A stretch of DNA of 64,000 nt from a virus: positions 1-64,000 of IMG/VR virus record IMGVR_UViG_3300030060_008569; one strand, 5' to 3'. Position numbers and translations under genes: made by a program. Shown piece after piece: positions 9,689 through 43,274 of the stretch (the first letter of the stretch is position 1; each line of letters opens with the position of its first letter). The notes beneath the pieces were generated by a model, which saw only the letters and a program-made list of their open reading frames with translations, made no database searches and was not told where the DNA came from.

Positions 9689-10591
9689 TTACCATTTTGG
9701 TAAAAAGAAGTTTTCTCCATACAATTTACCCATAACAGTTCTTAATTTTCTCATGGCTTTATATTGAATCTGTCTTATTCTTTCTCTTGAAACTCCGTAG
9801 CTTTTGGCAATATCTTCTAAAGTTTCTGGAGCTTTCCCGCCAAGGCCAAACCTTCTTCTAATAATTTGCTTTTCTCTACCTTTTAATTTGTTTATAAATA
9901 AAGTTAAATGTTTAACATTATCATGGAATCCAGTAGTCTTATCTGGAGTTGTCATTTGATTATCTTCTAACACATCTCCAAAAGTATCAGAATCAGAATC
10001 ATCACCAAGGGGGGCGTCAACTGATTTTAAATTTAAAACGCCCCCATTAACTAAATCATTTATAGTTTTTTTTGAAACACTTTTTTTTAATTCTTTATAT
10101 ATCTCATCCACTGAAGGCTCATTCCCAAACTCGCTTTTGTATTCACCAATGAATGTTTTAATTTTTCCAATTTTACCTTGAGCTAAATGGTCTGGTATCC
10201 TAATAGTCCTAGATTTATTAGAAAGACATCTTCTTATTTTTTGTTTAATCCAAAGGGAAGCGTAAGTAGAAAATCTAGCACCGTTATTAACATCATATCT
10301 ATCTACGGCATCAAGTAGTCCCATCGCACCTTCATTAATTAAATCTTCTGGCTCCATTCCAGCAAACTTATATTGATGCGCTATTTTAACAACCAATTTT
10401 AAATTATGTAATACTATTAGGTCGTAAGCCTCTTTACCTTCACGGCGTTGCTTTGAGCTACAATTTCTCTTGTTCTTATTCCACTTGTTATATTTAATAA
10501 AAAGCTCATTTAATTCTTTAGTCTTAAAAACTTTTAATTCTCCAATCCTTCCGTGAAGCTGGTCGATTGCGTTTGTATATGTAGTGTGCAT
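9689..10591 (-). CDS. RNA polymerase sigma-70 family factor (primary-type), 300 aa
   Basis: Start taken at ATG 10591, 8 nt after the upstream stop; the longer frame would overlap that gene. Region 2 spans about 54-130, including DLINEGAMGLLDAVDRYD and FSTYASLWIKQKIRR; a region-3-like segment follows; region 4 near 230-290 ends with LEDIAKSYGVSRERIRQIQ. This is a primary or RpoS-like arrangement without region 1.1. It probably redirects host RNA polymerase to phage promoters. Two other sigma-like genes (43282-43989 and 57100-57702) suggest a cascade. Confidence 0.92.
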   Translation of the reverse strand: MHTTYTNAIDQLHGRIGELKVFKTKELNELFIKYNKWNKNKRNCSSKQRREGKEAYDLIVLHNLKLVVKIAHQYKFAGMEPEDLINEGAMGLLDAVDRYDVNNGARFSTYASLWIKQKIRRCLSNKSRTIRIPDHLAQGKIGKIKTFIGEYKSEFGNEPSVDEIYKELKKSVSKKTINDLVNGGVLNLKSVDAPLGDDSDSDTFGDVLEDNQMTTPDKTTGFHDNVKHLTLFINKLKGREKQIIRRRFGLGGKAPETLEDIAKSYGVSRERIRQIQYKAMRKLRTVMGKLYGENFFLPKW

Positions 10592-10599
10592 AATAAATT

Positions 10600-10896
10600 T
10601 TATTTTAAATCGTCTATTCCTTCTACTTGGTATCCGTCCCAATACCAAGTGCCGTCATATTCTTCCGATACTTTTCCTTTCTTGTCCATTCGGATATAAG
10701 AAAAATCTCCCGATACACCTTGGAAGCAGCCAAAATCCTGCAATGGTAAAGTTGCGATTTTAGGACTACCGTTATCGTAAGTGGCGTTAATGCAAGTTAA
10801 ACGCGCATGAGTAGCGTGTTTTGGAGGGCGGGGTATGTCTACCGCCCAATCTGCTCTGCCCACTGTTACAACGGGCTTCTTTTGAAATCTTGACAT
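10600..10896 (-). CDS. hypothetical protein, 98 aa
   Basis: Not recognised. Beta-rich composition with many aromatic residues towards the end (YDGTWYWDGYQVEG). Its ATG overlaps the stop of the 48-aa membrane gene (TAATG), so it belongs to the coupled microprotein operon running from about 12.4 kb down to the sigma factor. Confidence 0.7.
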   Translation of the reverse strand: MSRFQKKPVVTVGRADWAVDIPRPPKHATHARLTCINATYDNGSPKIATLPLQDFGCFQGVSGDFSYIRMDKKGKVSEEYDGTWYWDGYQVEGIDDLK

Positions 10897-27104: not shown

Positions 27105-27944
27105 TTATTTACACCATTCTTTTACAATATTTTTAATTACAAAGGCTAAATTCTTCCATTCTTTAAGTCTCCGTAGAGTATAGGGGAGCCAATTTTCGCC
27201 AAAAGGCACATATATTCTAACTTTATGACCTTTATTTTTGTAATTTTCCTGCAAATCTCTTCTTATTCCGTATAAAAATTCGTAGTCAAAAAACTTGGGA
27301 TTCGGGATTAGCTCCTCTATATCTTCTAACAACTCTTCGTCATGGGTAGCTATGGCTGGTTTATTTGCCTTATTTGCGTACAAACTTGCAGCATAGTTAT
27401 AAAAACAGCCACTAATATCAAAATAGTGTTGGTAAGCTATTTTTTCACTCTCCTTGTACGCCCCTTTAACCAAGCGAACCGATATGTTACTTTTTATAAG
27501 TTTTTGCAGGTCAACTGCGGTTCTTAAAAGGTTGGCTTGAATGGCAACGCCAACATTTCCGAACCTTTTATTTAAAAGGATGGCTAAGTCTATGGTTATA
27601 TCGGTCACACGCGAATCTTCCATATCTAAACGAATTGTATGGCCTTTTTTATTTGCAAGTTTTGCTATGAAGGCCATGAGGCCAATAGCCATTTTCGGAT
27701 TTATATGTACGCCTAATTGTGAAGGCTTTATAGATATATCAATTTTTTCATTTGAAAAAGAATTTATAATTCTTATGTATTGATGTTTCGCTTTGTAACA
27801 GTCTAACGAGTTTTTACTTTCTTCCCCCACATAATCAACAGACACTTCGTAACCATCTTCAATCAGTTTATTTATTACTGGCTTGGCCGATTCAAGGGTG
27901 TGACCAGCAATAAACCTCTTTGCCAGTGGATACAAAAATCTCAT
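27105..27944 (-). CDS. proline dehydrogenase (PRODH), 279 aa
   Basis: FAD-dependent oxidation of proline to P5C. Visible motifs: IRLDMED, VRLVKGAYKES, FEFLYGIRR-type (YEFLYGIRRDLQ) and RIYVPFGENWLPYTLRRL, which bind the substrate. Length equals a stand-alone bacterial PRODH, and no P5C-dehydrogenase domain is fused. ATGA overlap with ornithine cyclodeaminase, which makes proline, so the pair would run ornithine to P5C. Confidence 0.9.
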   Translation of the reverse strand: MRFLYPLAKRFIAGHTLESAKPVINKLIEDGYEVSVDYVGEESKNSLDCYKAKHQYIRIINSFSNEKIDISIKPSQLGVHINPKMAIGLMAFIAKLANKKGHTIRLDMEDSRVTDITIDLAILLNKRFGNVGVAIQANLLRTAVDLQKLIKSNISVRLVKGAYKESEKIAYQHYFDISGCFYNYAASLYANKANKPAIATHDEELLEDIEELIPNPKFFDYEFLYGIRRDLQENYKNKGHKVRIYVPFGENWLPYTLRRLKEWKNLAFVIKNIVKEWCK

Positions 27945-28876
27945 TTTAATTGATTCCTCAAGTAAAGATTGTAAACTAAAATTCCAATAGCAATATCTTC
28001 TAGTGATACTCCAGTAGAATCAAAGACAGATACTCCCGCCTCTAAACTAATTTGCTTGTTGTTTTTAATAACGTGTCGCAAAGACCAAGTGTTCAAGTCT
28101 TGCCCAAATCTATATTGCAATTCTCCAGAATGAAACGCTTGAGCAGGGTCATCACATATTATATTTGAAGCTCCAGCAATTACATTTTTCATAAGTTCCC
28201 TTTTTCCTACTGCATCTGCACCTACTGCATTAACATGACAGTTATCTTTTAGGTAATTAAAATCTAAATATGGCTCTGTAGATGGAGTAAGTGTTGTTAC
28301 CAAGTCTGCTTGCCTGACAGCTTCTTTTACGTTTGATGGGTATTTAATTACATTTAAACTTTTTGGAATCTTATCAGCAAGTTTTTGAATTGCTTCTTCG
28401 TTTTTATCGTAAAGAGAAACTGTTTTAATATCTGGGAAAACGCTCCTGTAAGCTAAAAAATGATAGTAAGCCTGAAGGCCGCAGCCGACAAATGCAATTT
28501 CTCTTATATTATTTGGCAAACAATACTTAGCAGCTATGGCCGAGGTGGCCGCAGTTCTATAAGCAGTAAGGGTGGTGCAATCCATAGCCATTAATGGCTG
28601 ACCCGTCTCTCTATCGTTAAGAAGAAGTGTTCCTAGTGTTGTTGGTAAAGAGTTAACTAAATGATTGTTTGGATAAACCCCAATCCATTTTAAGCAAGCA
28701 TAATCTCCTAAAGCCGCTGGCATTGCACGAAAATCTCCTTGTGTGTGAGTATCTAGGTAAATCTTGGGAACCATCTTTGCAGACTCATCTAGGAAAGCGC
28801 TTTCGATAGAAGGTATTATTTTACCCCACTCTTTGTCGAGTAAGTGTGCAACTCCCAAGTCGTTTAATTGCTTCAC
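27941..28876 (-). CDS. ornithine cyclodeaminase / mu-crystallin family, 311 aa
   Basis: NAD-binding Rossmann fold (VGCGLQAYYHF, near 130-140), MDCTTLTAYRTAATSAIAAKY and DSTGVSLEDIA are family hallmarks. OCD converts ornithine to proline and ammonia; related family members are alanine dehydrogenase or tauropine-type enzymes. The coupling to PRODH argues for the ornithine activity. Confidence 0.88.
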   Translation of the reverse strand: MKQLNDLGVAHLLDKEWGKIIPSIESAFLDESAKMVPKIYLDTHTQGDFRAMPAALGDYACLKWIGVYPNNHLVNSLPTTLGTLLLNDRETGQPLMAMDCTTLTAYRTAATSAIAAKYCLPNNIREIAFVGCGLQAYYHFLAYRSVFPDIKTVSLYDKNEEAIQKLADKIPKSLNVIKYPSNVKEAVRQADLVTTLTPSTEPYLDFNYLKDNCHVNAVGADAVGKRELMKNVIAGASNIICDDPAQAFHSGELQYRFGQDLNTWSLRHVIKNNKQISLEAGVSVFDSTGVSLEDIAIGILVYNLYLRNQLK

Positions 28877-29061
28877 GATTTGTACCTCTTATAGCCCCAC
28901 CAACTATTTCTTAATTTAAATTCTAAATTGGTGGCTTCGGCCCACTTTCCCTCTGTTTTAAGTAATCTAACTTTATTTTCTGTAGCTCTAATTTTGCGCG
29001 TAAAATATTTTCGCAGCCAGTATGCGGGAACCCAAGGGGGTAAATAATTTTCTTCACTCAT
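28873..29061 (-). CDS. hypothetical basic protein, 62 aa
   Basis: Trp and Arg/Lys-rich with a helical middle (RKYFTRKIRATENKVRLLK). Four-nt overlap with the OCD gene. Not recognised. Confidence 0.6.
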   Translation of the reverse strand: MSEENYLPPWVPAYWLRKYFTRKIRATENKVRLLKTEGKWAEATNLEFKLRNSWWGYKRYKS

Positions 29062-29470
29062 TTTGCCAGTGCCTATTAATATTATTTACACTTGCATTTC
29101 CTAAATGCCACACCTGACAATTGAATTTCCCTAATTCGGGCCAATCCATTACATTTTGTATTAAAAATACGTTATTTAACTTTTCATTATCGTATACATG
29201 AGTATAGATGCACTCCATTTTGCATTCGGAGTCTTCTAATACTTTAACAATAATTGAAGGCTCTATATTTAAAAAGCCACCGAAAACTCTTGCAACAAAT
29301 TTATCAGAATATTTTGGGCCTTTAACGAATTTTATTTGCTGCAAATCAGAACCTTTAGCAGCGGTTCCATTACACACTAAGATAGGGGAAAATTTATTAT
29401 GAAATGAATCAAACTTTTCAAAAAACAAATCAGTTACGTCACCGTTGAATATGTAAGTTTGTTTGTTCAC
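29054..29470 (-). CDS. hypothetical protein, 138 aa
   Basis: GTG 29470 is preferred because AGAAGG lies 5 nt before it; a longer GTG start at 29491 exists. Beta-rich composition. Overlaps the small coiled-coil gene upstream. Not recognised. Confidence 0.6.
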   Translation of the reverse strand: MNKQTYIFNGDVTDLFFEKFDSFHNKFSPILVCNGTAAKGSDLQQIKFVKGPKYSDKFVARVFGGFLNIEPSIIVKVLEDSECKMECIYTHVYDNEKLNNVFLIQNVMDWPELGKFNCQVWHLGNASVNNINRHWQNE

Positions 29471-29564
29471 GAATCCTTCTGGCTCTTTCACAAGCGAGAC
29501 TTTTTTTGAGTCTTTTATTTTCAGACTCTAAAGAATTTATTTTAGACTTAATCTTTCTGTCCAT
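29439..29564 (-). CDS. small coiled-coil protein, 41 aa
   Basis: Predicted continuous helix, Lys/Arg/Glu-rich (KINSLESENKRLKKSLACER). Start ambiguous; ATGs at 29588 and 29585 would give longer versions. Overlaps both neighbours. Confidence 0.45.
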   Translation of the reverse strand: MDRKIKSKINSLESENKRLKKSLACERARRIREQTNLHIQR

Positions 29565-29865
29565 TGTGGTACGCTTGCGCTTCATCATAGTCTGTATAGT
29601 CTCTTCTGGTTGTGTATGTTTTACCCCTGAGAGGCTTGCCTTTGTAATAAAGCTCTCTTTGCCTTGCACTACTTAACCATTCAAAAGTTTCTGTTCTTGG
29701 TCGTATGCAAGCATCCTTTTCTTTTTGCCTCTCTTGGCACTTGGTATAATTCTCCTCGGCTTCAATATGTTCTAGATAAATTTCAAATATTTTATCTACG
29801 CGATTTTTATTTGGAGCCAACCACCAAGTAAGTTTAAATAAAATTTTAAATAAAAAGACTCTCAT
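29548..29865 (-). CDS. hypothetical protein with N-terminal helix, 105 aa
   Basis: Start at ATG 29865, overlapping the previous stop (ATGA). Hydrophobic first 17 residues (FLFKILFKLTWWLA) suggest a membrane anchor; the rest is charged. Not recognised. Confidence 0.6.
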   Translation of the reverse strand: MRVFLFKILFKLTWWLAPNKNRVDKIFEIYLEHIEAEENYTKCQERQKEKDACIRPRTETFEWLSSARQRELYYKGKPLRGKTYTTRRDYTDYDEAQAYHNGQKD

Positions 29866-30083
29866 ACCCCACCACTTTCCCACTCTGATGAAACATCTTC
29901 TTCGTCGCTCCCCTCTCCATAAGCGTAATCTAAAAATTGCCTAGTAATTATTTCAACTGGATACAACCCGCCCTCTATTTCTGTTCTAAATTCGGCGGCG
30001 CACCTTTCGGCAGCATCCCTTTCTTTAAAGAATCCTGCGCTACGTCCTCTATGGGTAATCTCATAAAATACTTCTTTTTTCAC
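29862..30083 (-). CDS. hypothetical acidic protein, 73 aa
   Basis: KEVFYEITHRGRSAGFF then RDAAERCAAEF, a small alpha/beta unit, with an acidic tail. Starts 1 nt after the previous stop. Not recognised. Confidence 0.65.
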   Translation of the reverse strand: MKKEVFYEITHRGRSAGFFKERDAAERCAAEFRTEIEGGLYPVEIITRQFLDYAYGEGSDEEDVSSEWESGGV

Positions 30084-30084
30084 A

Positions 30085-30654
30085 TTATGCGCTTTCTATT
30101 TTATTAAAATCAGAATATGGCGGCTTGGCTTGCCATTGAACCTGCCTACCATTTTCATTATACCAATGGTGGGCAATGTGTATCTCCACTTCTTTTGTAG
30201 GCTTGAACCGATACGCTCCAGCGACAAGCTGGGGGCTGTCGTTTGTATCGTTTTCAGACCTAATTACATGATAGACATCATAAATAGAATCTATCACATC
30301 GGTGTCATCTCTATCTCTGATATGGGAATCAATAAAGTTTTCCGCCGCTTCCAAAGACGGAAAGTGCAATTTTCCGCCATCCATGAAGCCATGATAAACA
30401 GTCTCTTGCTCCTGTTCAAAAGTCATGTACTCTCTTTCGGGTGCGAAAGAATCAGAAGTGTTTTTACTAAAGACCCACTGGCCCTGCCCACGCTCGTAAC
30501 AATAAACCCTGTAATTCCAATTAAAGCCAACCTCTCCGGTTTCCCCCTCGTGCCCCTTCGGGTCTTGCTCCCCCTCTTCGTATTGACAAGTCACCGTCCA
30601 AGTGGTTAAAGCTCCCATAACAGAGGCCCCTTTAATAAAATCCCTTCTATTCAT
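30085..30654 (-). CDS. Tat-signal protein, possibly lipoprotein, 189 aa
   Basis: N-terminus MNRRDFIKGASVMGAL fits a twin-arginine signal (RRxFxK), followed by TWTVTC, which could be a lipobox-like Cys. The mature part is acidic and Tyr/Trp-rich. Export of a folded protein by the host Tat system is implied. The -10 box is 7 nt from ATG. Confidence 0.65.
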   Translation of the reverse strand: MNRRDFIKGASVMGALTTWTVTCQYEEGEQDPKGHEGETGEVGFNWNYRVYCYERGQGQWVFSKNTSDSFAPEREYMTFEQEQETVYHGFMDGGKLHFPSLEAAENFIDSHIRDRDDTDVIDSIYDVYHVIRSENDTNDSPQLVAGAYRFKPTKEVEIHIAHHWYNENGRQVQWQAKPPYSDFNKIESA

Positions 30655-30661
30655 TACTAAT

Positions 30662-30690
30662 ATTATATTTGGGTTTTTTTAGAAAGTCAA
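30662..30690 (-). promoter_or_regulatory. sigma-70 promoter, leaderless, for Tat protein
   Basis: TTGACT (30685-30690), 17-nt spacer, TATAAT (30662-30667), 7 nt to ATG 30654. The -35 abuts the T-run of the structured RNA upstream. Confidence 0.8.
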
Positions 30691-30757
30691 AATAAAAAAG
30701 CATCGTTAGTATCTGGAGGGAAGAAAACAATGAAAACCTCCTGAGAAATCTAACGAT
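30689..30757 (-). terminator. intrinsic terminator of the structured RNA
   Basis: Hairpin ATCGTTAG (30750-30757) with CTAACGAT (30702-30709), plus an inner CAGGAGG/CCTCCAG stem, then GCTTTTTTATTTT on the minus strand. Confidence 0.75.
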
Positions 30758-31060
30758 AACTTTTAGGTTTACTGAGTGTTCAATGCGGGTGGAAGACCTA
30801 ATTACCCAGAGTATTGAAGCAATTAGGAAAAGTACCCTGTCCGTAGCTCTCTTACGGCTCTATTCTCAGAAATTAATGGGAAGGAGGGTTCTCATTTACC
30901 TCCATCGTTTTGGGGTCACAGCTTGAGTTTCAAGTCAAAACCCTACTTTGAGCCAACCCTCATCAGCCCCCAGACTTGGTATGTCCTGCTAATGAGCATT
31001 GCACGTTAACTGCCGCGACAGCAGTTTATTCCGTCATTCCCTTTGCCGCTCCGTCGAGCA
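30690..31060 (-). ncRNA. candidate large structured RNA, ~370 nt
   Basis: No credible ORF. Minus-strand helices include GCTGCTC/GAGCGGC, AACTGC/GCAGTT, CTTGA/TCAAG, GGAGG/CCTCC, CCGTA/TACGG and CCTAATT/AATTAGG. A long terminal hairpin (ATCGTTAG/CTAACGAT with an inner CAGGAGG/CCTCCAG part) is followed by CTTTTTTATTTT. The strand follows from the T-run. It lies just downstream of the 114-aa gene and may be processed from its transcript. No known family recognised. Confidence 0.6.
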
Positions 31061-31071
31061 GCAAAATTATT

Positions 31072-31416
31072 TTAAAGAACAAAAATCTTAGAGTCTTCTA
31101 AGAAAAGTTTTAAATGATATTGCTTGGGGAGTGCTTTCTTAGTTCTTGAATCAAAGAACCTAAAGCCATTTTCCTTGCAATTATCTACATACACTTGCTG
31201 TTTCCATTTTGGTCTTGGAGTCTTCTTTTGCTCCAAGGCGTTGACCTCATCTAAGTCTACAGCCCCTTTTAGCCATCCGCCTTTTTCAAAGGAGCTGAAG
31301 GTCATACTAAAAGCGTGACTCTTCTTTAGTCTATGCTTGTTTCCGCGATAGCTTTCCTTAAAGCCCTTAATTTGTATGGACTTTTTCTTCGGGATGTATT
31401 TTGCTATTACGTTCAC
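31072..31416 (-). CDS. hypothetical basic protein, 114 aa, GTG start
   Basis: GTG start 9 nt after the -10 box. Lys-rich (KYIPKKKSIQIKGFKESYRG), predicted beta-rich. Not recognised. The structured RNA follows its stop codon. Confidence 0.65.
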   Translation of the reverse strand: MNVIAKYIPKKKSIQIKGFKESYRGNKHRLKKSHAFSMTFSSFEKGGWLKGAVDLDEVNALEQKKTPRPKWKQQVYVDNCKENGFRFFDSRTKKALPKQYHLKLFLEDSKIFVL

Positions 31417-31425
31417 TGTACAATT

Positions 31426-31454
31426 ACTATATCACATTTTTGATTCGGAGTCAA
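31426..31454 (-). promoter_or_regulatory. sigma-70 promoter, GAATCAAAA spacer
   Basis: TTGACT (31449-31454), spacer CCGAATCAAAAATGTGA, TATAGT (31426-31431). The spacer is shared with the two promoters upstream. Confidence 0.8.
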
Positions 31455-31457
31455 GCT

Positions 31458-31625
31458 TTAATTGCTTCTGGTGTTCATTTTGTGAATGTTCCAGAAACCA
31501 AGAATACTTGGAACCCACAGGCCAACATAAATGCCCGCCTCTTTTGAACCGTTAAACCAGAGTAAAACACTGGCGGTTAAACTTGCAATACTTGCTACGA
31601 GATAAACTACATCTAATTTGTTCAT
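31458..31625 (-). CDS. two-helix membrane protein, 55 aa
   Basis: Two hydrophobic segments (about 5-23 and 31-47) with a short polar tail. The ATG is 9 nt after the -10 box. Not recognised. Confidence 0.6.
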   Translation of the reverse strand: MNKLDVVYLVASIASLTASVLLWFNGSKEAGIYVGLWVPSILGFWNIHKMNTRSN

Positions 31626-31634
31626 GGTGATATT

Positions 31635-31663
31635 ACTATATCAGAGTTTTGATTCGGTGTCAA
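31635..31663 (-). promoter_or_regulatory. sigma-70 promoter, GAATCAAAA spacer
   Basis: TTGACA (31658-31663), spacer CCGAATCAAAACTCTGA, TATAGT (31635-31640). Confidence 0.8.
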
Positions 31664-31681
31664 GAACTTTTTAGTTATTAT

Positions 31682-31972
31682 TTATACTTTTGAAGTTTTG
31701 AAAGAGATATTATAATTATAGCGAGGGACATCTGGAAATCGGCCAGCCGAAGGGTCATCAGACTTGAAGCCAGCAATTTCCGCAGCTTTTATAAAAGAAT
31801 GTTCATGTATATAACTACCCATGCGACCATCGCGGCGGCTCCACCATTCTACTTGATGTTTTAAACCATAAGAGGTTATTTTACGATTGAATCCTTTTGT
31901 TTTTTTTGTCATTGATTCCATCCACTTCAAGCAGACTTCTACTTCTTTTTCTTTGTAATTTAATTTATTCAT
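31682..31972 (-). CDS. hypothetical protein, 96 aa
   Basis: Start set at ATG 31972, 10 nt after the -10 box; the frame remains open upstream through the promoter. Contains KITSYGLKHQVEWWSRRDGR, which looks like a small DNA-associated fold seen in phage microproteins. Not assigned. Confidence 0.65.
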   Translation of the reverse strand: MNKLNYKEKEVEVCLKWMESMTKKTKGFNRKITSYGLKHQVEWWSRRDGRMGSYIHEHSFIKAAEIAGFKSDDPSAGRFPDVPRYNYNISFKTSKV

Positions 31973-31982
31973 TCTAAGATTT

Positions 31983-32011
31983 AGAATAACAGGATTTTGA
32001 TTCGGGGTCAA
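31983..32011 (-). promoter_or_regulatory. sigma-70 promoter, GAATCAAAA spacer
   Basis: TTGACC (32006-32011), spacer CCGAATCAAAATCCTGT, TATTCT (31983-31988). Confidence 0.65.
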
Positions 32012-32021
32012 GAACTTTTTT

Positions 32022-32195
32022 TTACCAAAATGGGCCATACTCACCCCAAAAAGAATCCCCCGTTAGAACGCACCATATCATCCGCCCCCCTAAATAAACA
32101 ATAGCACCTATAACGGGTAAGGCTGGTATTAAGATGCTAATACCAATGACAACGAGAGTAATAATAAGAATTGCTGATAGAATATCTTTAAGCAT
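32022..32195 (-). CDS. small membrane protein, 57 aa
   Basis: ATG 32195 overlaps the last codons of speD. Two hydrophobic segments with a Gly-rich turn (ILSAILIITLVVIGISILIP, then IGAIVYLGGRMIWCVL). Role unknown. Confidence 0.6.
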   Translation of the reverse strand: MLKDILSAILIITLVVIGISILIPALPVIGAIVYLGGRMIWCVLTGDSFWGEYGPFW

Positions 32196-32574
32196 GAAGT
32201 TTAACAACCTCGTCAATATTTTTAGCTCTATTTAAAACTATAAACTTATAGTCATCAAAATCAAATTTTGAATTTAACATTTCAACGGCTTTATCAATAT
32301 CTAATTCTCCGCAAGTGTAAAAATCAAACTGTATTAGCGCGGGGTCTTGCTCGTCCCATATATGAAATGCCATGTGGCTTGTTTTAAGTAAGCAACAGGC
32401 AGTCACGCCTTTATTTCCCTCGTCCTCTACATAAGAAACTACAGGCTTGGATGCAAGCTGCATGCCATTGCCCATAATAAAATCTTCTATCCAAAGACTG
32501 GTTTCAACAAGGTCATCAGCGGTGGGAACTTTTTTAATCGTTCCTTTTAGTATTAGGTGATTATGTTGTAGCAT
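32188..32574 (-). CDS. speD: S-adenosylmethionine decarboxylase (SpeD-like), 128 aa
   Basis: TSHMAFHIWDE (65-75) and FDFYTCGELD (84-93) match the prokaryotic SpeD pattern. Ser66 would be the self-cleavage site giving the pyruvoyl group, with His71 and Cys88 catalytic. Makes decarboxylated SAM for spermidine synthesis. No spermidine synthase is seen here, so the phage would use the host enzyme. Cyanophages also carry speD. Confidence 0.82.
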   Translation of the reverse strand: MLQHNHLILKGTIKKVPTADDLVETSLWIEDFIMGNGMQLASKPVVSYVEDEGNKGVTACCLLKTSHMAFHIWDEQDPALIQFDFYTCGELDIDKAVEMLNSKFDFDDYKFIVLNRAKNIDEVVKLHA

Positions 32575-32577
32575 ATT

Positions 32578-32931
32578 TCACCTGTCGTCAGGAGACTTCC
32601 ATAAAACCTCCAGCTTCGCAAGCTGGGCCTTTGCCACCTCTGGGTGTTGACACATGAGCCAAGCAGCGGTCCAACGCCTTTCAAACTCTTTTACCTTTTC
32701 CTCTGTGGGAAAAACCTCTGAGTTGCGTTTATCAAACTGCGTCCTATCGTCCACTACTGGCTCAAAGTCAGGGTGAACAATATGCTGCGCTCTTGAAGGA
32801 GAGCATCTAATGCACCTACGCTTGGCGAAAAGCCCAACGTATGGCTCGTCCCATGCAATCGCGTGCATGGTTACCGAACAGTTTTCAGTGGTGACTTCGC
32901 AGTCACATTTATCGCAAATTTCTTTGGTCAT
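32578..32931 (-). CDS. zinc-binding hypothetical protein, 117 aa
   Basis: CDKCDC near residues 6-11 and CIRC near 40-43 probably form a zinc site; the C-terminal half is helical and acidic-basic mixed. Upstream sequence repeats that of 18023-18250. Not recognised. Confidence 0.65.
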   Translation of the reverse strand: MTKEICDKCDCEVTTENCSVTMHAIAWDEPYVGLFAKRRCIRCSPSRAQHIVHPDFEPVVDDRTQFDKRNSEVFPTEEKVKEFERRWTAAWLMCQHPEVAKAQLAKLEVLWKSPDDR

Positions 32932-32955
32932 ACTTATTTCTTAAAAAACTCTAAT

Positions 32956-34551
32956 TTATTTTTCAGTTTCGGGGAAAGTTTTGTTTTTTTCAAGTTCAGA
33001 AATGAAATCTTCTACCATTTCTGATTTAGGGTTTACGTTGTAAATTATCTTTTGGTGTTGTTGCGCGCCGCCATTAACTTTTATTCCGTCTTCGCTACCT
33101 ACCATTACAGTTTTACCTTGTAGCCCGCTTGCTGCGTATTTTTCATGCCTGTATGTCCTTGAGTATTGGTTCCTATCGTGACCTTTCGGAGATGCATGTG
33201 TACCTCCTTTGCCTGTTGTTCTCATAGAATTAAAATACTCTTTTCTAGGTATATCTATGATTTTTTCACTAGTCAATTCTTTATAGGATGCTTTTTCTTT
33301 TTTAAGCGGAAGCCCCTTGGCTGCTTTCCTTTGGTTTATCGTAAGTGATTTATTATTTGTCACAAACTCTCTTTTGTGAGAAAAATTCAAAAGAGACAAG
33401 CACATAAGTAATTTATTTAAAATCGACCCCTCAATTCTTGAGTCCTCTCTTTTACCGCGATTTATCAAAACTTCAAAGTCTTCGTAACTATTAAAATAAA
33501 GCCAGCCTATCATTCCGCCTCGCTCTTTATATTTGCTATCAGGAATCTTTTCTTCATATAAAAAATGCAAACTTGAAGAAAACTTTGACCTTAATTGTTG
33601 CATAGCAAATCTATTAAAACCCTCTCGTTTTTCTTTTGGTATTTTACTGTACGCCACAGCCCCCTCTGACTGAGGGTTCGAATCAGCCGCCTTTGAATAT
33701 AAATCAATGGCATCCAAAACCAACTTCCTTAAAAATTTATAATTAATATTGAAGTAATCTGACTCTTTGGGAGAGGAAAAGGTTAGCAAGAAAGAATATT
33801 TGTTTCCAAATTCAATTGTATATGCATCTGATAAATGAAAAAACTGCTTCTTCCAATCTTGTTTAGCTATTTTAGGGTCTATTGACACCTCATCCATTCT
33901 TCTTGCATGACTCTCATCTATTCGCACTGTTACATTTCTTTCTTCTGCTTTCAAGGCCGCCCAGTATTTAAGTAACTCTAGGCTTTCGTGGGTTGTTACT
34001 CTAGCATGGCCATCTGTCTCGTTGTTAAGTCCAGTCTGCCTCATCCAGTCTTCGTGCGCTTCAAAATCAGGAACACTACAGTAAGCTTTAACTAGAGAGT
34101 CAACGTATGGGATTATGTAATTTTGATTTAATATGGACAAAGAGTATTTGTTGGCGACATTCGTTCCAGAGATGCCTAATTTTTCAAAATTTCTTGGGAA
34201 TGTTTTAAATTTATCTAACTCAATTAAAGCATCATCGAAAATAAATTGACTATGACATGTCCTTTTCTCTTGTCCGCTGGCAAGGGCAGATGCTGGGGAT
34301 TTAGTGTTAAACTTACCTTCGGTAGCTTCATGAGCTTTTATCTCGTTTTCTTTGAACCACTGTTCAGTGGCAACCGAGCCGACTAGTTCAACAGCCGCAG
34401 CACGCTGCTGGTCTTTCGTTAAATTCTCGTTACCAATCGCGTGCATTATTACATTTGTCACATCCCCTTTACCGGACAAAGCTTTTTGAACATTTCGTAG
34501 TTTTGAAACTACCTCTCTAACCCTTTCGTCATGTTGGCTTTTATCTTTCAT
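32956..34551 (-). CDS. hypothetical phage protein, 531 aa
   Basis: Large soluble protein, mostly helical, with a basic C-terminal segment containing RNQYSRTYRHEKYAASGLQG, of a kind seen in other phage proteins of unknown role. No nuclease, polymerase or ATPase motif is visible. Overlaps the zinc-ribbon gene upstream by 11 nt, so it is translationally coupled. Confidence 0.7.
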   Translation of the reverse strand: MKDKSQHDERVREVVSKLRNVQKALSGKGDVTNVIMHAIGNENLTKDQQRAAAVELVGSVATEQWFKENEIKAHEATEGKFNTKSPASALASGQEKRTCHSQFIFDDALIELDKFKTFPRNFEKLGISGTNVANKYSLSILNQNYIIPYVDSLVKAYCSVPDFEAHEDWMRQTGLNNETDGHARVTTHESLELLKYWAALKAEERNVTVRIDESHARRMDEVSIDPKIAKQDWKKQFFHLSDAYTIEFGNKYSFLLTFSSPKESDYFNINYKFLRKLVLDAIDLYSKAADSNPQSEGAVAYSKIPKEKREGFNRFAMQQLRSKFSSSLHFLYEEKIPDSKYKERGGMIGWLYFNSYEDFEVLINRGKREDSRIEGSILNKLLMCLSLLNFSHKREFVTNNKSLTINQRKAAKGLPLKKEKASYKELTSEKIIDIPRKEYFNSMRTTGKGGTHASPKGHDRNQYSRTYRHEKYAASGLQGKTVMVGSEDGIKVNGGAQQHQKIIYNVNPKSEMVEDFISELEKNKTFPETEK

Positions 34552-34735
34552 ATTCTTTTCTCTTTCCCATTAAGTAGTGATGATGTAATACTTTATAAGG
34601 TGGGCAATCAGGACATTTTCCGTCAATCAATTTGTATCCACAAACAATGCATTCTTCATCTTCGGTTTTTGGTTTGGCTCCTAGAACTTGCTGTTCTAAT
34701 TCTAGAATAACTTTTTGGCGTTCTTCTTCAGTCAT
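34541..34735 (-). CDS. zinc-ribbon protein, 64 aa
   Basis: CxxC at 29-32 (CIVC) and CPDC at 41-44 form a zinc ribbon in a protein that is otherwise helical. Function unknown; possibly an adaptor for the 531-aa protein with which it is coupled. Confidence 0.65.
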   Translation of the reverse strand: MTEEERQKVILELEQQVLGAKPKTEDEECIVCGYKLIDGKCPDCPPYKVLHHHYLMGKRKEYER

Positions 34736-34754
34736 ACTTGCCTTGCCCCCAAAG

Positions 34755-35294
34755 TTATCTTAATTCCTTTCTTAGTAATCTCCACCTGTCACTATCAATA
34801 GCCTTTTTGCCATCATTTATTTGGTGAATCATTTCTAATACTTCTTCTATATTGTTATAAATGTAATGGTGTGGGAGCATTCCCATAATCCATAAAGGGG
34901 TTTGACTCTTACCCCCTTCCATAGACACAAATACGGGTTTCTTCGCTCGAACTGCGGTAACAAGTTCCTCTGCGCTACCCCAGCTTGCTATATCTGGCAA
35001 AATGTGAGCAATAATGAAGTCAGACCTATCAACAAGATTAAGGTCATAGTTGCGAACAGTTCTCATCCTTTCGGCTACGTCATTGTAGTAACCGCTGGCC
35101 ATATCTTCGGCCATCTTTTGGCGAGCACCCTCGTCCTCTTCTACGTCTTTTACGAAAGGCTTACGATAAGGGTTGAAAGTGATAATGTTGAGCTTTTCTA
35201 GCTCATCTTCAACATATTTTCTCCAATCACGGCCACTTGCATATTGCATATGGCCCACTAGATATGTCCTTGTCTTCTCTAATACGTTTGACAT
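34755..35294 (-). CDS. nucleoside 2-deoxyribosyltransferase-like protein, 179 aa
   Basis: YLVGHMQYASGRDWRKYVE at the start, then VRNYDLNLVDRSDFIIAHI and ASWGSAEELVTAVRAKKPVFV resemble the NDT fold; the WGSAEEL Glu is in the usual nucleophile position. Could salvage or modify nucleosides, or make or hydrolyse nucleotide signals as related phage-defence proteins do. Leaderless promoter 6 nt upstream. Confidence 0.75.
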   Translation of the reverse strand: MSNVLEKTRTYLVGHMQYASGRDWRKYVEDELEKLNIITFNPYRKPFVKDVEEDEGARQKMAEDMASGYYNDVAERMRTVRNYDLNLVDRSDFIIAHILPDIASWGSAEELVTAVRAKKPVFVSMEGGKSQTPLWIMGMLPHHYIYNNIEEVLEMIHQINDGKKAIDSDRWRLLRKELR

Positions 35295-35300
35295 GCTATG

Positions 35301-35329
35301 AATATAGCACGTTTTTGATGGGTTGTCAA
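35301..35329 (-). promoter_or_regulatory. sigma-70 promoter, leaderless
   Basis: TTGACA (35324-35329), 17-nt spacer ending ACGTGC, TATATT (35301-35306), 6 nt to ATG 35294. The -35 overlaps the stop codon of the bS21 gene. Confidence 0.85.
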
Positions 35330-35529
35330 CCCCAATATTCGCGTTCTTGCTTGGACTTTAGTTTTTGGATATATTTAGCTTTTCTTTCTTTCTTATATTT
35401 CTTTCGGGTGGGCTTTTCGTAGTATCTTTTTTCTCTAGCGTAATCTAGAGTTTTCTCTTTCAATAGTTTTCTCTTGAGCTTTTTGATGCCCTTCTCTACA
35501 TTTTCCCCTTTTTTTAGTTTTATTTCCAT
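35326..35529 (-). CDS. rpsU: ribosomal protein bS21 homologue, 67 aa
   Basis: Near-standard bS21: IKLKKGENVEKGIKKLKRKLLKE then LDYAREKRYYEKPTRKKYKKE. bS21 sits by the anti-Shine-Dalgarno of 16S rRNA and helps initiation. Phage copies are known from some marine and huge phages and may bias ribosomes to phage mRNAs. It starts 1 nt after the lysine-dehydrogenase-like gene, so is at the end of that operon. Confidence 0.92.
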   Translation of the reverse strand: MEIKLKKGENVEKGIKKLKRKLLKEKTLDYAREKRYYEKPTRKKYKKERKAKYIQKLKSKQEREYWG

Positions 35530-35530
35530 T

Positions 35531-36679
35531 TTAAAATTGAATCCCTAATTCTTTCATGTTCTCATTAAATTTATCAAAAGGTACATCCGAATAGTTTAAT
35601 ACTATTGGCAGCGAAATATCACCCCCTCGGTTCTGAACCTTCCTTTCGTCAAAGAATCCCTCTGCCATTAATTTAGCCACTGAAGATATGGAAAATGCGG
35701 TTGACTTTTGCATGGCGGTAAATTGCAAGTCGTAGCCTACAATGATTTCTTTTTTCCAAGTAACATTGCCACCACTCACCTCTACCTTTAACAGCACGAC
35801 ATCTCCAGTGTGATTTTCGCAGTTGTTAAAAATATCTTGTAAGCATTCTTTAGACAGTTTGGTATTTCTAATTAAAAGCCTAACCATATCTCTGTGGCCT
35901 TTATATCTTATAGTTTTATAAGAACAATTAGACACATCTCTTTTTGCCATGCTGGCGATTGAATGGGAAGCTCCTCCACTTGTGTAAAAGGCCTCTAGCT
36001 CTTCATCCCCCAGTAAATCAAAAGTCACTGGCTCTAGCCCATCCATGCCCTTTACCTTTTCTATGAGTCCGTTATTTAAAACCTCACAGTCGTCTTCATA
36101 TTCATTTATAAGCCCATCTACAGACCAAGTACAAGCATAATTTAAAGGTGGGTTTATTTTTATAGCAGGGATGCCACCGACCATCATCTTAACATTTTCA
36201 ACCTCGTGATGTAACTCTGAATAACCTTGCTCTGCTAAAATATTTACCCAACCGGGGGCCAATCCCAAGTCTGTAAAGATAGGTTTAGTTGCGTTCTCTT
36301 TAGCGTAGTCATTTATGTTTTGAGAAACGTCAACTCTACCCCCCAAGTCACAGTAGCGAATGCCGTTGTCTATACAATACTTTGCTACAGTTTCAGTTTG
36401 ATAATAAGGTAAACTACTGATAACAATATCTGGTTTTACTTGAGCCTCTAAACCTTTACAAATATCTTCTGAGTTACTAACAATAAAAAACTCATTGCGA
36501 GGTGCTCCCACGATGTTATTACCCTCTTCGTCTTGCGTCTGTTCGTAATTGACTTTTTTAGGAATGTTCTCTGCCGCATCTGGATTAGTGTCCATTCCAA
36601 CCACATGAAATCCGAATTTGTCCATTGCATAAGCAATGGCGGTTCCCATTCTTCCAACACCTAATACTATAGCTTTCAT
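35531..36679 (-). CDS. saccharopine/lysine-6-dehydrogenase-like enzyme, 382 aa
   Basis: NAD(P)-binding GxGxxG (VLGVGRMGTAIAY, 6-18), then SSLPYYQTETVAKYC, TDLGLAPGWVNILAEQG and CTWSVDGLINEYED, all typical of the saccharopine dehydrogenase family and closest in style to lysine 6-dehydrogenase. The expected reaction oxidises lysine to piperideine-6-carboxylate. It shares an operon with an aldehyde dehydrogenase able to take that product. Carboxynorspermidine or saccharopine activities cannot be excluded. Confidence 0.78.
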   Translation of the reverse strand: MKAIVLGVGRMGTAIAYAMDKFGFHVVGMDTNPDAAENIPKKVNYEQTQDEEGNNIVGAPRNEFFIVSNSEDICKGLEAQVKPDIVISSLPYYQTETVAKYCIDNGIRYCDLGGRVDVSQNINDYAKENATKPIFTDLGLAPGWVNILAEQGYSELHHEVENVKMMVGGIPAIKINPPLNYACTWSVDGLINEYEDDCEVLNNGLIEKVKGMDGLEPVTFDLLGDEELEAFYTSGGASHSIASMAKRDVSNCSYKTIRYKGHRDMVRLLIRNTKLSKECLQDIFNNCENHTGDVVLLKVEVSGGNVTWKKEIIVGYDLQFTAMQKSTAFSISSVAKLMAEGFFDERKVQNRGGDISLPIVLNYSDVPFDKFNENMKELGIQF

Positions 36680-37044
36680 ATTTCTTCTATCCTTTTTGAC
36701 TTATCATCAATCACCAAATCGCAAGCTGGTTTAATATACTTACCTTTGGAGCCGGTAGACAAGTCATTAAACTTGCACCCCCAACCTTCTAGCTGGTTCC
36801 AAGTAAAATCATAGTAACATCTGCCAGCCGCTTTAGATTTTTCAGAGCCTCCGCGAGCTGTCCAATAAATAATGTACCAACCTTCGTCGTACATTTTGTT
36901 TATTTTAGCTATGTTTTCTTGATGAGGTTTCGCTAAATCATAACGCCTCTTACCTTCTTCGTAAAAACATACCGTTTCATCTATGTCTACCAACGCCACT
37001 TGTTGGTCATCCGCAGCAAACTGCTTCGAATCGTGAAATTCCAT
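36676..37044 (-). CDS. HAD-family phosphatase-like, 122 aa
   Basis: Start at ATG 37044 just after the previous stop. DIDETVC (near 20-26) is the HAD nucleophile motif DxDxT; IIYWTARGG and DLVIDDK supply motifs II and III-like parts. Comparable to phage polynucleotide-kinase 3'-phosphatase-like small HADs. Substrate unknown. Confidence 0.75.
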   Translation of the reverse strand: MEFHDSKQFAADDQQVALVDIDETVCFYEEGKRRYDLAKPHQENIAKINKMYDEGWYIIYWTARGGSEKSKAAGRCYYDFTWNQLEGWGCKFNDLSTGSKGKYIKPACDLVIDDKSKRIEEI

Positions 37045-37048
37045 TTTA

Positions 37049-37252
37049 TTATTTGTAAACTTTACGAGTTCTTGGTCCGGATTCATCATCAGCTTCAGCA
37101 GACTCTTGTGAATCTCTGTATTGGTGAATTTCAGAAACCCTAGCCATTAAAAACTCCCTATCCTCTTGGGATAATTCTTTGGTATCTGACCAAGGCATAC
37201 CTAAAGTAGTCATAATATGCCAATTTTCTTCTTGTGTACTCATTTTACTCAT
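37049..37252 (-). CDS. hypothetical acidic protein, 67 aa
   Basis: TAATG overlap with the aldehyde dehydrogenase stop selects ATG 37252. Helical and acidic. Not recognised. Confidence 0.6.
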   Translation of the reverse strand: MSKMSTQEENWHIMTTLGMPWSDTKELSQEDREFLMARVSEIHQYRDSQESAEADDESGPRTRKVYK

Positions 37253-38787
37253 TATTTCATTCCTTGTGGAAAAGTTAATTTGTCTGCGTGGTTAACAGTC
37301 CAGCTAATTTCATGGGTAACAGCCCTGAATGTTCTTGCTGCACTAGGAAATCCATTGCCAGATTTTTTAACACCGCCGAAAGCTAAGTGCGATTCAGCAG
37401 CGATTGAACCTCCGTTCCAGTATATCATGCCAGCATCGCATTCGTCTCTCATTACTCTTGCTTTTCTAAAGTCATTTGTCAACACTCCAACAGCTAAACC
37501 ATATTCAGTATCATTGTAAATTCTAATAGCATCCTCGACTGTATCAAAGGGAATTATTGCTACATGAGGCCCGAACACTTCATTCCTTAGAAAACCTGCA
37601 TCGCAGTTAGTCCATTCTCTTTTATAAACCATTGGAGTGCTGTAGTATGCTCCGTTTTCACCAGTGTAAACAGGGTCAAGTAACACTTCAGCTTTTGGGT
37701 CTGAGTGTACCAGTTTATTCATGAATCTTATCTTACTAAACCCTTGCTCATTAATAATTGGGCCATAGTATATATCTTCGTTTGGTACTAGCTCTTCCCA
37801 AACCATTCCATCTGGACAACCAGATGAGCCAAGCATAGATTTGAATGGGTTCCCTGTTTTTATTTGTTTAGCTTTTGCAGCAAATTTCTCGGAAAACTCA
37901 TGGTATATACTTCGCTGTACAATCATTCTACCAGATGATACGCAACGCTGACCAGACAGCTTAAATGCACTAGCAATAGAAGCCTCAATGGCTAAATCAA
38001 TTTCAACGTCATCAAAAACAATGCAAGCGGATTTACTACCTAATTCGCATGAGGTAGTTTTGTGCCATGATTCAGCAGCAACTTTACGAATGTGTTGTCC
38101 GACATCAGCACTACCAGTAAAACAGATGTGGTCGCAATTACCCCTAACCAAAAAATCGCCAGTAGCACCATCGCCATGCACCAAGTTAATGACCCCACGA
38201 GGGATGCCAGCCTCCTCATAAATTTGAACAGCGGCTTGAGTTGACATTGGTGCGTCTTCACTTGGTTTAATTACAATAGTATTCCCCTCTACTAAAGCTG
38301 GGGCAGCGTTCCAAAACATGCCTATTGCCAGCGGAAAGTTAAATGGAGTTACAATAGCTATTACACCTTTAGGCTTTCGTAGCATATACGCATCTTTTTC
38401 AGCAATTTCTGAAGAAACAGCTTCGCCATGACTATAACGGCCAGAACCAAAAGCAAACTGTGCCATGTGCAAGGCTTCATTAACCTCTGCGATACTTTCG
38501 TTGTAGTTTTTCCCTGTTTCAAGTGAAATAATCGTAGCTAATTTATTTTTATCCCTTTCAATTATTTGAGCAACCTTATTTAAATAATCTGAACGGGTAA
38601 ATCTACTAACCTTTTTCCAAGTTTTAAAAGCCTCTCTAGCAGAAAGTAGCGCCTTGCCAACCTCATCCTTGCAACTTAAGGGGAACGCACCTTGCGCCTT
38701 TCCGGTTGCAGGGTTAATTTTAGTATACATGTCGGCGGTAGCTCGCCACACGCCATTGATATAGTTCCTACCTTCGAAATCCCTCAT
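37252..38787 (-). CDS. NAD(P)-dependent aldehyde dehydrogenase, 511 aa
   Basis: Start at ATG 38787 (ATGA overlap with the VOC gene). Classic ALDH: VTPFNFPLAIGMFWNAAPAL, FTGSADVGQHI, catalytic Glu in CELGSKS, catalytic Cys in SGQRCVSSGRM, EVFGPHVAI and a late FGGVKKSGNG. Its context suggests aminoadipate-semialdehyde or glutamate-semialdehyde oxidation, but substrate cannot be read from sequence alone. Complete length. Confidence 0.93.
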   Translation of the reverse strand: MRDFEGRNYINGVWRATADMYTKINPATGKAQGAFPLSCKDEVGKALLSAREAFKTWKKVSRFTRSDYLNKVAQIIERDKNKLATIISLETGKNYNESIAEVNEALHMAQFAFGSGRYSHGEAVSSEIAEKDAYMLRKPKGVIAIVTPFNFPLAIGMFWNAAPALVEGNTIVIKPSEDAPMSTQAAVQIYEEAGIPRGVINLVHGDGATGDFLVRGNCDHICFTGSADVGQHIRKVAAESWHKTTSCELGSKSACIVFDDVEIDLAIEASIASAFKLSGQRCVSSGRMIVQRSIYHEFSEKFAAKAKQIKTGNPFKSMLGSSGCPDGMVWEELVPNEDIYYGPIINEQGFSKIRFMNKLVHSDPKAEVLLDPVYTGENGAYYSTPMVYKREWTNCDAGFLRNEVFGPHVAIIPFDTVEDAIRIYNDTEYGLAVGVLTNDFRKARVMRDECDAGMIYWNGGSIAAESHLAFGGVKKSGNGFPSAARTFRAVTHEISWTVNHADKLTFPQGMK

Positions 38788-39341
38788 TTTCTTGTACTTT
38801 CCATTAATCCTTTTACGTTGTCCTTGCAAAACCCATCTCCAGTTCTATTTATAAGCTCATAAATGACTCCCGTCAACTCAGAAGGCTTTGTAAATACCTG
38901 AACTAAACCTTCGCACCTCAAGGGTGCGCTCGAATAAAATTCAGCATAACCAGCATTAAGCCACATTTTCATTGTAGCATCAACATCTTCTACTTGATAA
39001 GCTATATGATGAACTCCGGGTCCATTTTCCTCAACCCAGTCACCCACAATAGAGCCTTTGGGTCCGTCACTAACGAATATTTCAGGGGGAGAGTGGTAGG
39101 GGTGGAATTGAGCCTCAACTTTTTGACCTTTAGAGTCTGGAGCGTCAGCTAAAAGCACCTCCCATTCTGAGATTTCAGGATGCCTCTCTTCTGGTGGGAG
39201 TAAAGCTAGGCACTCCGCCTTAGTCCCATCACTGAAATCTATTTCAAATTCTGTGCCAAGCGTATACCCCAAGCACCTTTTAAGAAATTTGGCTGTTTTT
39301 TTCCTGTTTTTTACTCTGTAGGCTATATGGTCTAACCTCAT
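38784..39341 (-). CDS. VOC-superfamily (glyoxalase/HPPD-like) protein, 185 aa
   Basis: Start at ATG 39341, 7 nt after the -10 box. Two beta-alpha-beta-beta-beta repeats: LDHIAYRVKNRKKTAKFL near the start and VHHIAYQVEDVDATMKMW later, each with a metal-ligand His, then GVIYELINR with a Glu. Metal-dependent lyase, isomerase or dioxygenase-type chemistry; the exact substrate is unknown. First gene of the ALDH operon. Confidence 0.75.
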   Translation of the reverse strand: MRLDHIAYRVKNRKKTAKFLKRCLGYTLGTEFEIDFSDGTKAECLALLPPEERHPEISEWEVLLADAPDSKGQKVEAQFHPYHSPPEIFVSDGPKGSIVGDWVEENGPGVHHIAYQVEDVDATMKMWLNAGYAEFYSSAPLRCEGLVQVFTKPSELTGVIYELINRTGDGFCKDNVKGLMESTRK

Positions 39342-42871: not shown

Positions 42872-43274
42872 TGGTGGAGGCGAGGGGAGTCGAACCCCTG
42901 TCTTTGGAGCCTATCGGCTCAGACTTCTACAAGCTTAGTCGGTGTTAAATACTCGCTTGGCATGTCACCGACAAACGGCCTACACGAGTTTTGAGCAACC
43001 TTTTATCCTAGTGCTGCTCGGCCCTAGTTTTTTGCCCGCTATCGACGCCCTAGCTCCTTAACGAGCATCCAGAGTAGGACGGGTAACTTACGCAGTTACA
43101 GCAGCTTCTTCAGCCCAGCCGAACTTAGCGAGAATCGCATCAGCTTCAGCAAGTGAAGGAGCCATATCAACATTATTGGCAGTTGAATTACCTTGATAGA
43201 TGATTTAAGAGGCCGACTATCATCCTCTGCTTGCTATCTGGCGTAAGAACCCAAATCGAATCCAGTACGCCCCC
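42872..43274 (-). ncRNA. ssrA: tmRNA (one-piece), 30-aa proteolysis tag
   Basis: tRNA-like ends are complete: 5' GGGGGCG with TGGATTCGAT, and 3' GGGGTTCGACTCCCC then CGCCTCC plus ACCA, with acceptor pairing. The tag frame from GCC (43180) to TAA (43088) encodes 30 residues beginning ANNVDMAP and ending EEAAVTA. Rescues stalled ribosomes and tags nascent proteins for proteolysis. Only 7 nt separate it from the upstream ECF sigma stop; a candidate promoter AATCAAAATGTGTAACAAT (43278-43296) overlaps that gene. Confidence 0.93.

What the first reader, a model, noticed from the sequence alone, without database searches (positions are those of the whole stretch)
30690..31060. Structured ~370-nt RNA between minus-strand genes
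Many stable helices, no ORF, strong terminator. It does not fit tRNA, RNase P, 6S or tmRNA by eye. Large structured RNAs of unknown role (GOLLD, ROOL type) are known in phages, so this may be a new family.
Basis: partly seen in the sequence, partly recalled or inferred. Interest (0 to 1): 0.7.

Follow-up and report, generated by a model that had tools for sequence, protein, structure and literature searches.

The report
Divergent manA RNA in unknown phage
The structured RNA is real, and half of it belongs to manA, a phage RNA family known since 2010 and listed as a possible riboswitch; its neighbourhood in related phages suggests that it is instead a free-standing RNA made by the virus.

Summary
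In detail: on the minus strand lies a folded non-coding RNA of about 370 nt with an intrinsic terminator. It is not a new family. Its 5' half (30873-31063) is a divergent manA RNA (Rfam RF01745; 53.2 bits against a gathering score of 55.2, E about 1e-13). Twelve relatives show strong covariation: 20 of 45 pairs changed on both sides, 0 of 500 shuffles as good. A model built only from this clade recovers every complete manA RNA searched in other phage contigs, and no decoy. Eight of 13 clade members pass Rfam's cut-off.

New points: (1) the clade's constant partner is the gene upstream (window 31072-31416, basic, 114 aa; 13/13), while downstream genes fall into about nine unrelated groups; (2) a 16-mer found once per genome marks the 5' edge; (3) terminators often follow; (4) elsewhere manA starts right after strong promoters, sits in tRNA arrays, and precedes 39 unrelated gene clusters. 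This fits an autonomous phage RNA better than the accepted 'cis-regulatory, possible riboswitch' label, but no expression data exist. The 3' half (30694-30869) has no known relatives.

The parts
31067..31082 (-). Conserved element TTGTTCTTTAAAATAA at the 5' edge of the RNA; its TAAAAT lies where the -10 box of other manA promoters lies (promoter activity inferred). It overlaps the last codons (F-V-L-stop) of the upstream gene.
   Evidence: Once per genome (at most one mismatch) in 12 of 12 records, always just 5' of manA or of an RNA module before it; conserved also where it is not coding (L131, L132, L141, L151).
30873..31063 (-). manA RNA domain (RF01745), divergent clade; P1 31042-31065, closing stem GGGAA 31037-31041 with UUCCC 30878-30882, terminal hairpin GGAGG 30899-30903 with CCUCC 30883-30887
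   Evidence: cmscan 53.2 bits over model positions 1-192; covariation; reciprocal model search
30772..30869 (-). 3' structured segment enclosed by CUGAG/CUCAG, no known family
   Evidence: fold; no Rfam match; no counterpart in relatives
30694..30758 (-). Intrinsic terminator: interrupted hairpin and six U
   Evidence: about -20 kcal/mol; five relatives have a terminator at a similar place
30662..30690 (-). Promoter-like site TTGACT-17-TATAAT (11 of 12) for the next gene, after the terminator
   Evidence: consensus match only
31072..31416 (-). Upstream gene, basic 114-aa protein (pI 10), constant neighbour of this manA clade; candidate partner
   Evidence: homologue upstream of manA in 11 of 11 relatives and in L216; alignment A1; no family
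30085..30654 (-). Downstream gene with a weak Tat-signal match; not the conserved partner
   Evidence: downstream genes differ among relatives

Best explanation
Identity (shown): 30873-31063 on the minus strand is a divergent manA-family RNA, followed by a structured 3' segment of no known family and an intrinsic terminator. Mode of action (inferred): an autonomous phage non-coding RNA. Transcription probably starts at the conserved element at 31067-31082, the manA core folds at the 5' end, and transcription stops near 30694, giving a free RNA of about 370 nt that acts in trans. The nearly invariant unpaired stretches (UGACnGAAUAA, the ACC-containing loop, GGUAAAUGAGA) would contact a protein or another RNA; in this clade the basic 114-aa product of the upstream gene is the first candidate partner. 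Which process it serves (phage RNA stability, translation, host takeover) is not determined. Shown: homology, fold, covariation, conserved start element, constant upstream gene, variable downstream genes. Inferred: promoter activity, free RNA, action in trans, protein partner.
For: manA match E 2.2e-14; covariation; the clade-only model finds 32 of 32 complete manA RNAs of other contigs and 0 of 10 decoys. Upstream gene conserved in 13 of 13 genomes, downstream genes not. Genome-unique start element. Terminator after the RNA in the window and five relatives, then a separate promoter-like site in the window. Elsewhere: 104 of 143 manA loci begin directly after a strong sigma-70-like promoter, 6 follow a tRNA and 13 are followed by one; 39 unrelated downstream clusters among 115 loci, 30 with a terminator before the next ORF.
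Against: No transcript data. The start element lacks a clear -35 box. Seven of 13 clade members show no detectable terminator before the next gene, and 85 of 115 other loci show none, many with the start codon 10-40 nt after the RNA, as a leader would have. The conserved upstream gene could be simple synteny. The literature calls manA cis-regulatory.
Confidence: 0.5

Rival explanations
1. manA is a 5'-terminal leader module that protects or boosts whatever transcript it heads, for example by hiding the 5' end from RNase E, without sensing a ligand. In the window it would head the short terminated transcript or read-through into 30085.
For: The RNA begins at the predicted transcript start in at least 104 of 143 loci; the downstream genes are diverse and include presumably highly expressed ones such as the ssDNA-binding protein. 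RNase E is induced during a cyanophage infection (PMC10989914).
Against: Does not explain manA inside tRNA arrays, terminators directly after it, or the constant upstream gene in this clade.
Confidence: 0.25
2. Ligand-sensing riboswitch or other cis-acting 5' UTR element that controls the downstream gene (here 30085-30654).
For: Published view: potential 5' UTRs, complex structure (PMC2864571). In the window the manA core, a terminator and a gene follow each other.
Against: About nine unrelated downstream groups in 13 close relatives and 39 clusters elsewhere; tRNAs on either side in some phages; in the window the next gene has its own promoter-like site after the terminator; core and terminator fold side by side in the predicted structure with no visible competition.
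Confidence: 0.13
3. Structured 3' UTR or co-transcribed RNA partner of the upstream 114-aa gene, for example an RNP or an RNA-protein regulatory pair.
For: Gene and RNA are linked in 13 of 13 genomes, even where the reductases of the phages are only 35% identical; the protein is basic (pI 10).
Against: A conserved element separates gene and RNA; small ORFs lie between them in four genomes; no homologue of the protein was detected in the cyanophage-type manA loci held.
Confidence: 0.15
4. A new family of the GOLLD or ROOL kind.
For: Structured and phage-borne; some manA relatives lie in tRNA arrays, as GOLLD and ROOL often do.
Against: The 5' half is homologous to manA; no GOLLD or ROOL match; much smaller.
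Confidence: 0.02

Closest known systems
manA RNA, Rfam RF01745 (Weinberg et al. 2010, PMC2864571; alignment updated in Rfam 14.3, PMC7779021)
   Same: Full-length match to the model, same helices, same UGACnGAAUAA segment, same closing stem and terminal hairpin.
   Different: Below the curated cut-off; P5 has a short inner part instead of the longer branched insert of the cyanophage type; found in a phage group with no detected near relatives in the phage collection; constant upstream gene; terminator and extra RNA modules nearby.
GOLLD and ROOL RNAs (PMC12286853)
   Same: Structured phage RNAs of unknown function; often near tRNA islands, as some manA RNAs are.
   Different: No sequence or model match; GOLLD members often exceed 800 nt; no evidence here of oligomers.
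wcaG RNA, RF01761
   Same: Companion candidate from marine metagenomes and cyanophages described with manA; both occur in cyanophage S-CREM1.
   Different: No match in the window.

Membership tests
manA RNA (RF01745) | Consensus secondary structure of the model over its full length | tested here: met
   Model positions 1-192 aligned; 97.9% of cells paired on the clade alignment, 20 pairs with two-sided changes
manA RNA (RF01745) | Conserved segments: GGGnnUGACnGAAUAA at the 5' side, GGUA..CC terminal hairpin followed by CCC | tested here: met
   Sequence at 31041-31026 and 30903-30878; alignments
manA RNA (RF01745) | Curated gathering score of 55.2 bits (a search threshold, not a structural definition) | tested here: inconclusive
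   Window 53.2 (not reached); 8 of 13 clade members reach it, up to 60.8; reciprocal model recovers known manA
manA RNA (RF01745) | Located in the 5' UTR of the gene it regulates (published assumption) | tested here: inconclusive
   A gene follows, but after a terminator and a separate promoter-like site; downstream genes vary
Riboswitch | Ligand binding that changes the fold | not testable with these tools
   Needs in-line probing or SHAPE
GOLLD / ROOL | Match to the Rfam models | tested here: not met
tmRNA, RNase P, 6S, tRNA | Match to the Rfam models or ARAGORN in this region | tested here: not met
   None in the region; the window's tmRNA and tRNA lie elsewhere

The most novel reading that the evidence does not exclude
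manA is not a riboswitch: it is a free-standing phage RNA, expressed from its own start site or cut out of tRNA arrays, joined in some phages by other structured RNA modules in a variable RNA island, and in the window's phage group paired with a dedicated basic protein.
Probability: 0.4. Interest if true: 0.75.

Novelty: new variant of a known kind. Interest (0 to 1): 0.5.

Why it matters
manA has been listed since 2010 as a candidate riboswitch, and no ligand or tested function turned up in the papers searched here. The contexts collected here (constant upstream gene, variable downstream genes, tRNA arrays, terminators, own start element) make a specific alternative testable: a trans-acting phage RNA, possibly with a protein partner. 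The family also reaches a phage group that the current Rfam threshold partly misses.

Tried and rejected
Close relatives through the downstream protein 30085-30654 or ornithine cyclodeaminase 27941-28876: none. Pattern GGGANTGACGGAATAAA: 3 hits, rejected as chance because none matches manA. Direct blastn of the region against phages: only short matches. Upstream 114-aa protein and the 531-aa protein 32956-34551 against the phage collection: no match. The window 3' segment as a divergent member of the module found downstream of manA in relatives: alignment scores no better than shuffles, although both begin with a GAG stem and AUAG. The 16-mer as merely conserved coding sequence: rejected, it is conserved where it is not coding. 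The cyanophage hairpin after manA as an abiF RNA (reported near manA in S-CREM1): no Rfam match in L022. Function of the 114-aa protein by fold: model of moderate confidence (pLDDT 74, pTM 0.62) without a significant Foldseek match. Apparent tandem manA copies (for example L142): they look like one long-form RNA matched in two pieces. Promoters after the terminators of relatives: scores of 8-10 of 12 are common in shuffles, so only the window's 11 of 12 is quoted.

Full report
Observation. On the minus strand it folds better than shuffled sequence (z -2.9); the 5' half is the stronger part (z -3.5; 3' half z -2.5). No minus-strand ORF of 20 aa or more lies inside 30731-31063. A terminator-like hairpin with six U ends it at 30694.

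Identity. A scan of the whole window at gathering thresholds missed it. A permissive scan of the region gave manA, RF01745, over all 192 model positions at 30873-31063, 53.2 bits, E 7.8e-13, against a gathering score of 55.2; in the whole 65.9-kb virus record E is 2.2e-14. The next best family had E 0.49, so manA stands out clearly.

Relatives. Degenerate patterns from the UGACnGAAUAA segment brought in more than 100 manA loci from viral contigs and a group close to the window: L131, L132, L136, L141, L150, L151, L153, L162, L166, L170, L224, and the more distant L216 from a contig binned as Woesebacteria. Eight of these 13 clade members (window included) reach Rfam's own cut-off. A structure written by hand from the window sequence and the Rfam alignment was counted on the clade alignment: 97.9% of cells paired, 20 of 45 pairs changed on both sides (shuffles 8.0, 0/500 as high), and at most 3 when the partners are slid by 1-3 columns. 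A covariance model from these 13 RNAs alone found all 32 complete manA RNAs searched in other contigs at E <= 8e-4, the five long forms at E <= 0.03, and none of ten contigs that merely carry the sequence pattern. On the fitted alignment of 34 distinct RNAs 30 of 44 pairs change on both sides (such an alignment leans towards its model).

Neighbourhood in the clade. A homologue of the upstream gene 31072-31416 is present in all 11 relatives and in part in L216, 38-85% identical, upstream of the RNA on the same strand, even where the ribonucleotide reductases of the phages are only 35% identical. The 16-mer TTGTTCTTTAAAATAA occurs exactly once, with at most one mismatch, in each of 12 records, always at the 5' edge of the RNA or of an extra RNA module before it. 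In eight genomes it overlaps the codons F-V-L-stop; in L131, L132, L141 and L151 it is conserved outside the gene, so it is a nucleic-acid element. Its TAAAAT lies where the -10 box of cyanophage-type manA promoters lies. Downstream, the first ORFs form ten groups in 13 genomes; the L136 ORF in that list lies inside an RNA module and is probably spurious, which makes nine. Five relatives and the window have a terminator between manA and the next gene; in the window a promoter-like site of 11 of 12 follows it.

Neighbourhood elsewhere. In 143 non-redundant pattern-matched loci (a few of them chance hits), 104 have a sigma-70-like promoter of at least 10 of 12 matches; in the loci with at least 9 the -10 box ends 20-32 nt before the GGG, that is, directly before P1. 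In six loci a tRNA ends 19-25 nt before the GGG, and in 13 a tRNA starts within 320 nt after it, at 175-195 in the rows listed, directly after the RNA. Among 115 loci of other phages the next ORFs form 39 unrelated clusters, the largest (23) resembling the T4-type ssDNA-binding protein and the second (13) transaldolase; one singleton looks like a mannose-6-phosphate isomerase, which recalls the family's name (names by sequence inspection, not tested). In 30 loci an intrinsic terminator precedes the ORF. These counts hold only for RNAs that carry the searched pattern.

Interpretation. The 2010 description (PMC2864571) placed manA in potential 5' UTRs and rated it a probable riboswitch candidate; the S-CREM1 paper (PMC9964418) notes that a regulatory role remains to be verified. 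The contexts above speak against a metabolite switch for one class of genes, and in the window's clade the constant partner is upstream. I judge an autonomous RNA most likely (0.5), a non-sensing 5' leader next (0.25), then a 3' UTR or RNA-protein pair (0.15) and a riboswitch (0.13). The identity as a divergent manA RNA I hold at about 0.97. No expression data were available, so start, end and stability of the transcript are inferred.

The 3' half. The segment 30772-30869 plus terminator has no Rfam match and no counterpart downstream of manA in the relatives. Relatives carry other modules in the same place, so manA seems to be the constant element of a variable RNA island. In L131, L136, L151, L153 and L224 the module shares an internal loop (AUAGCGAU opposite CGCCGUGAC) inside stems with unrelated interiors and has no Rfam match. 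In L131, L150 and L162 another module of about 135 nt precedes manA.

Limits. Relatives are contigs of uncultured viruses, mostly fragments; the host is unknown. E-values from model R1 are rough. Promoter calls are consensus matches.

Noticed in passing
L131:2025-2132(-), L151:66-156(-), L153:3093-3196(+), also downstream of manA in L136 and L224: Recurrent RNA module: outer stem, internal loop AUAGCGAU opposite CGCCGUGAC, unrelated interiors; no Rfam family. Possibly a new small motif.
   Followed up: partly
L131, L150, L162, between the 16-mer and manA: Extra structured module of about 135 nt (GCUUGCAUCUU..GUGCAAGC type closing stem) inserted between the start element and manA.
   Followed up: partly
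L020, L021, L022, L024, L029, L033 and others, 178-183 nt after the GGG of manA: Conserved hairpin ACCTAAGATGCAA..GGGCAGATGGT directly after manA in 23 of 140 loci; no Rfam match in L022.
   Followed up: partly
L135, L142, L144, L152, L163: Long-form manA of about 390 nt, matched by the Rfam model in two overlapping or adjacent pieces.
   Followed up: no
L140, L143, L161, L164, L167, L116, L137, L146: manA inside or at the edge of phage tRNA arrays, with tRNAs directly before and/or after it.
   Followed up: partly
window 42872-43274 (-): Phage-encoded tmRNA with tag AEADAILAKFGWAEEAAVTA.
   Followed up: no
window 27105-38829 (-): Auxiliary metabolic genes: ornithine cyclodeaminase, an AdoMet decarboxylase-like protein and a saccharopine dehydrogenase-like protein; by sequence inspection also a proline dehydrogenase-like and an aldehyde dehydrogenase-like protein. 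Suggests manipulation of host proline or polyamine metabolism.
   Followed up: no
window 9689-10648 (-): Sigma-70-type factor with regions 2, 3 and 4 encoded by the phage; it might recognise the unusual start element of the RNA.
   Followed up: no
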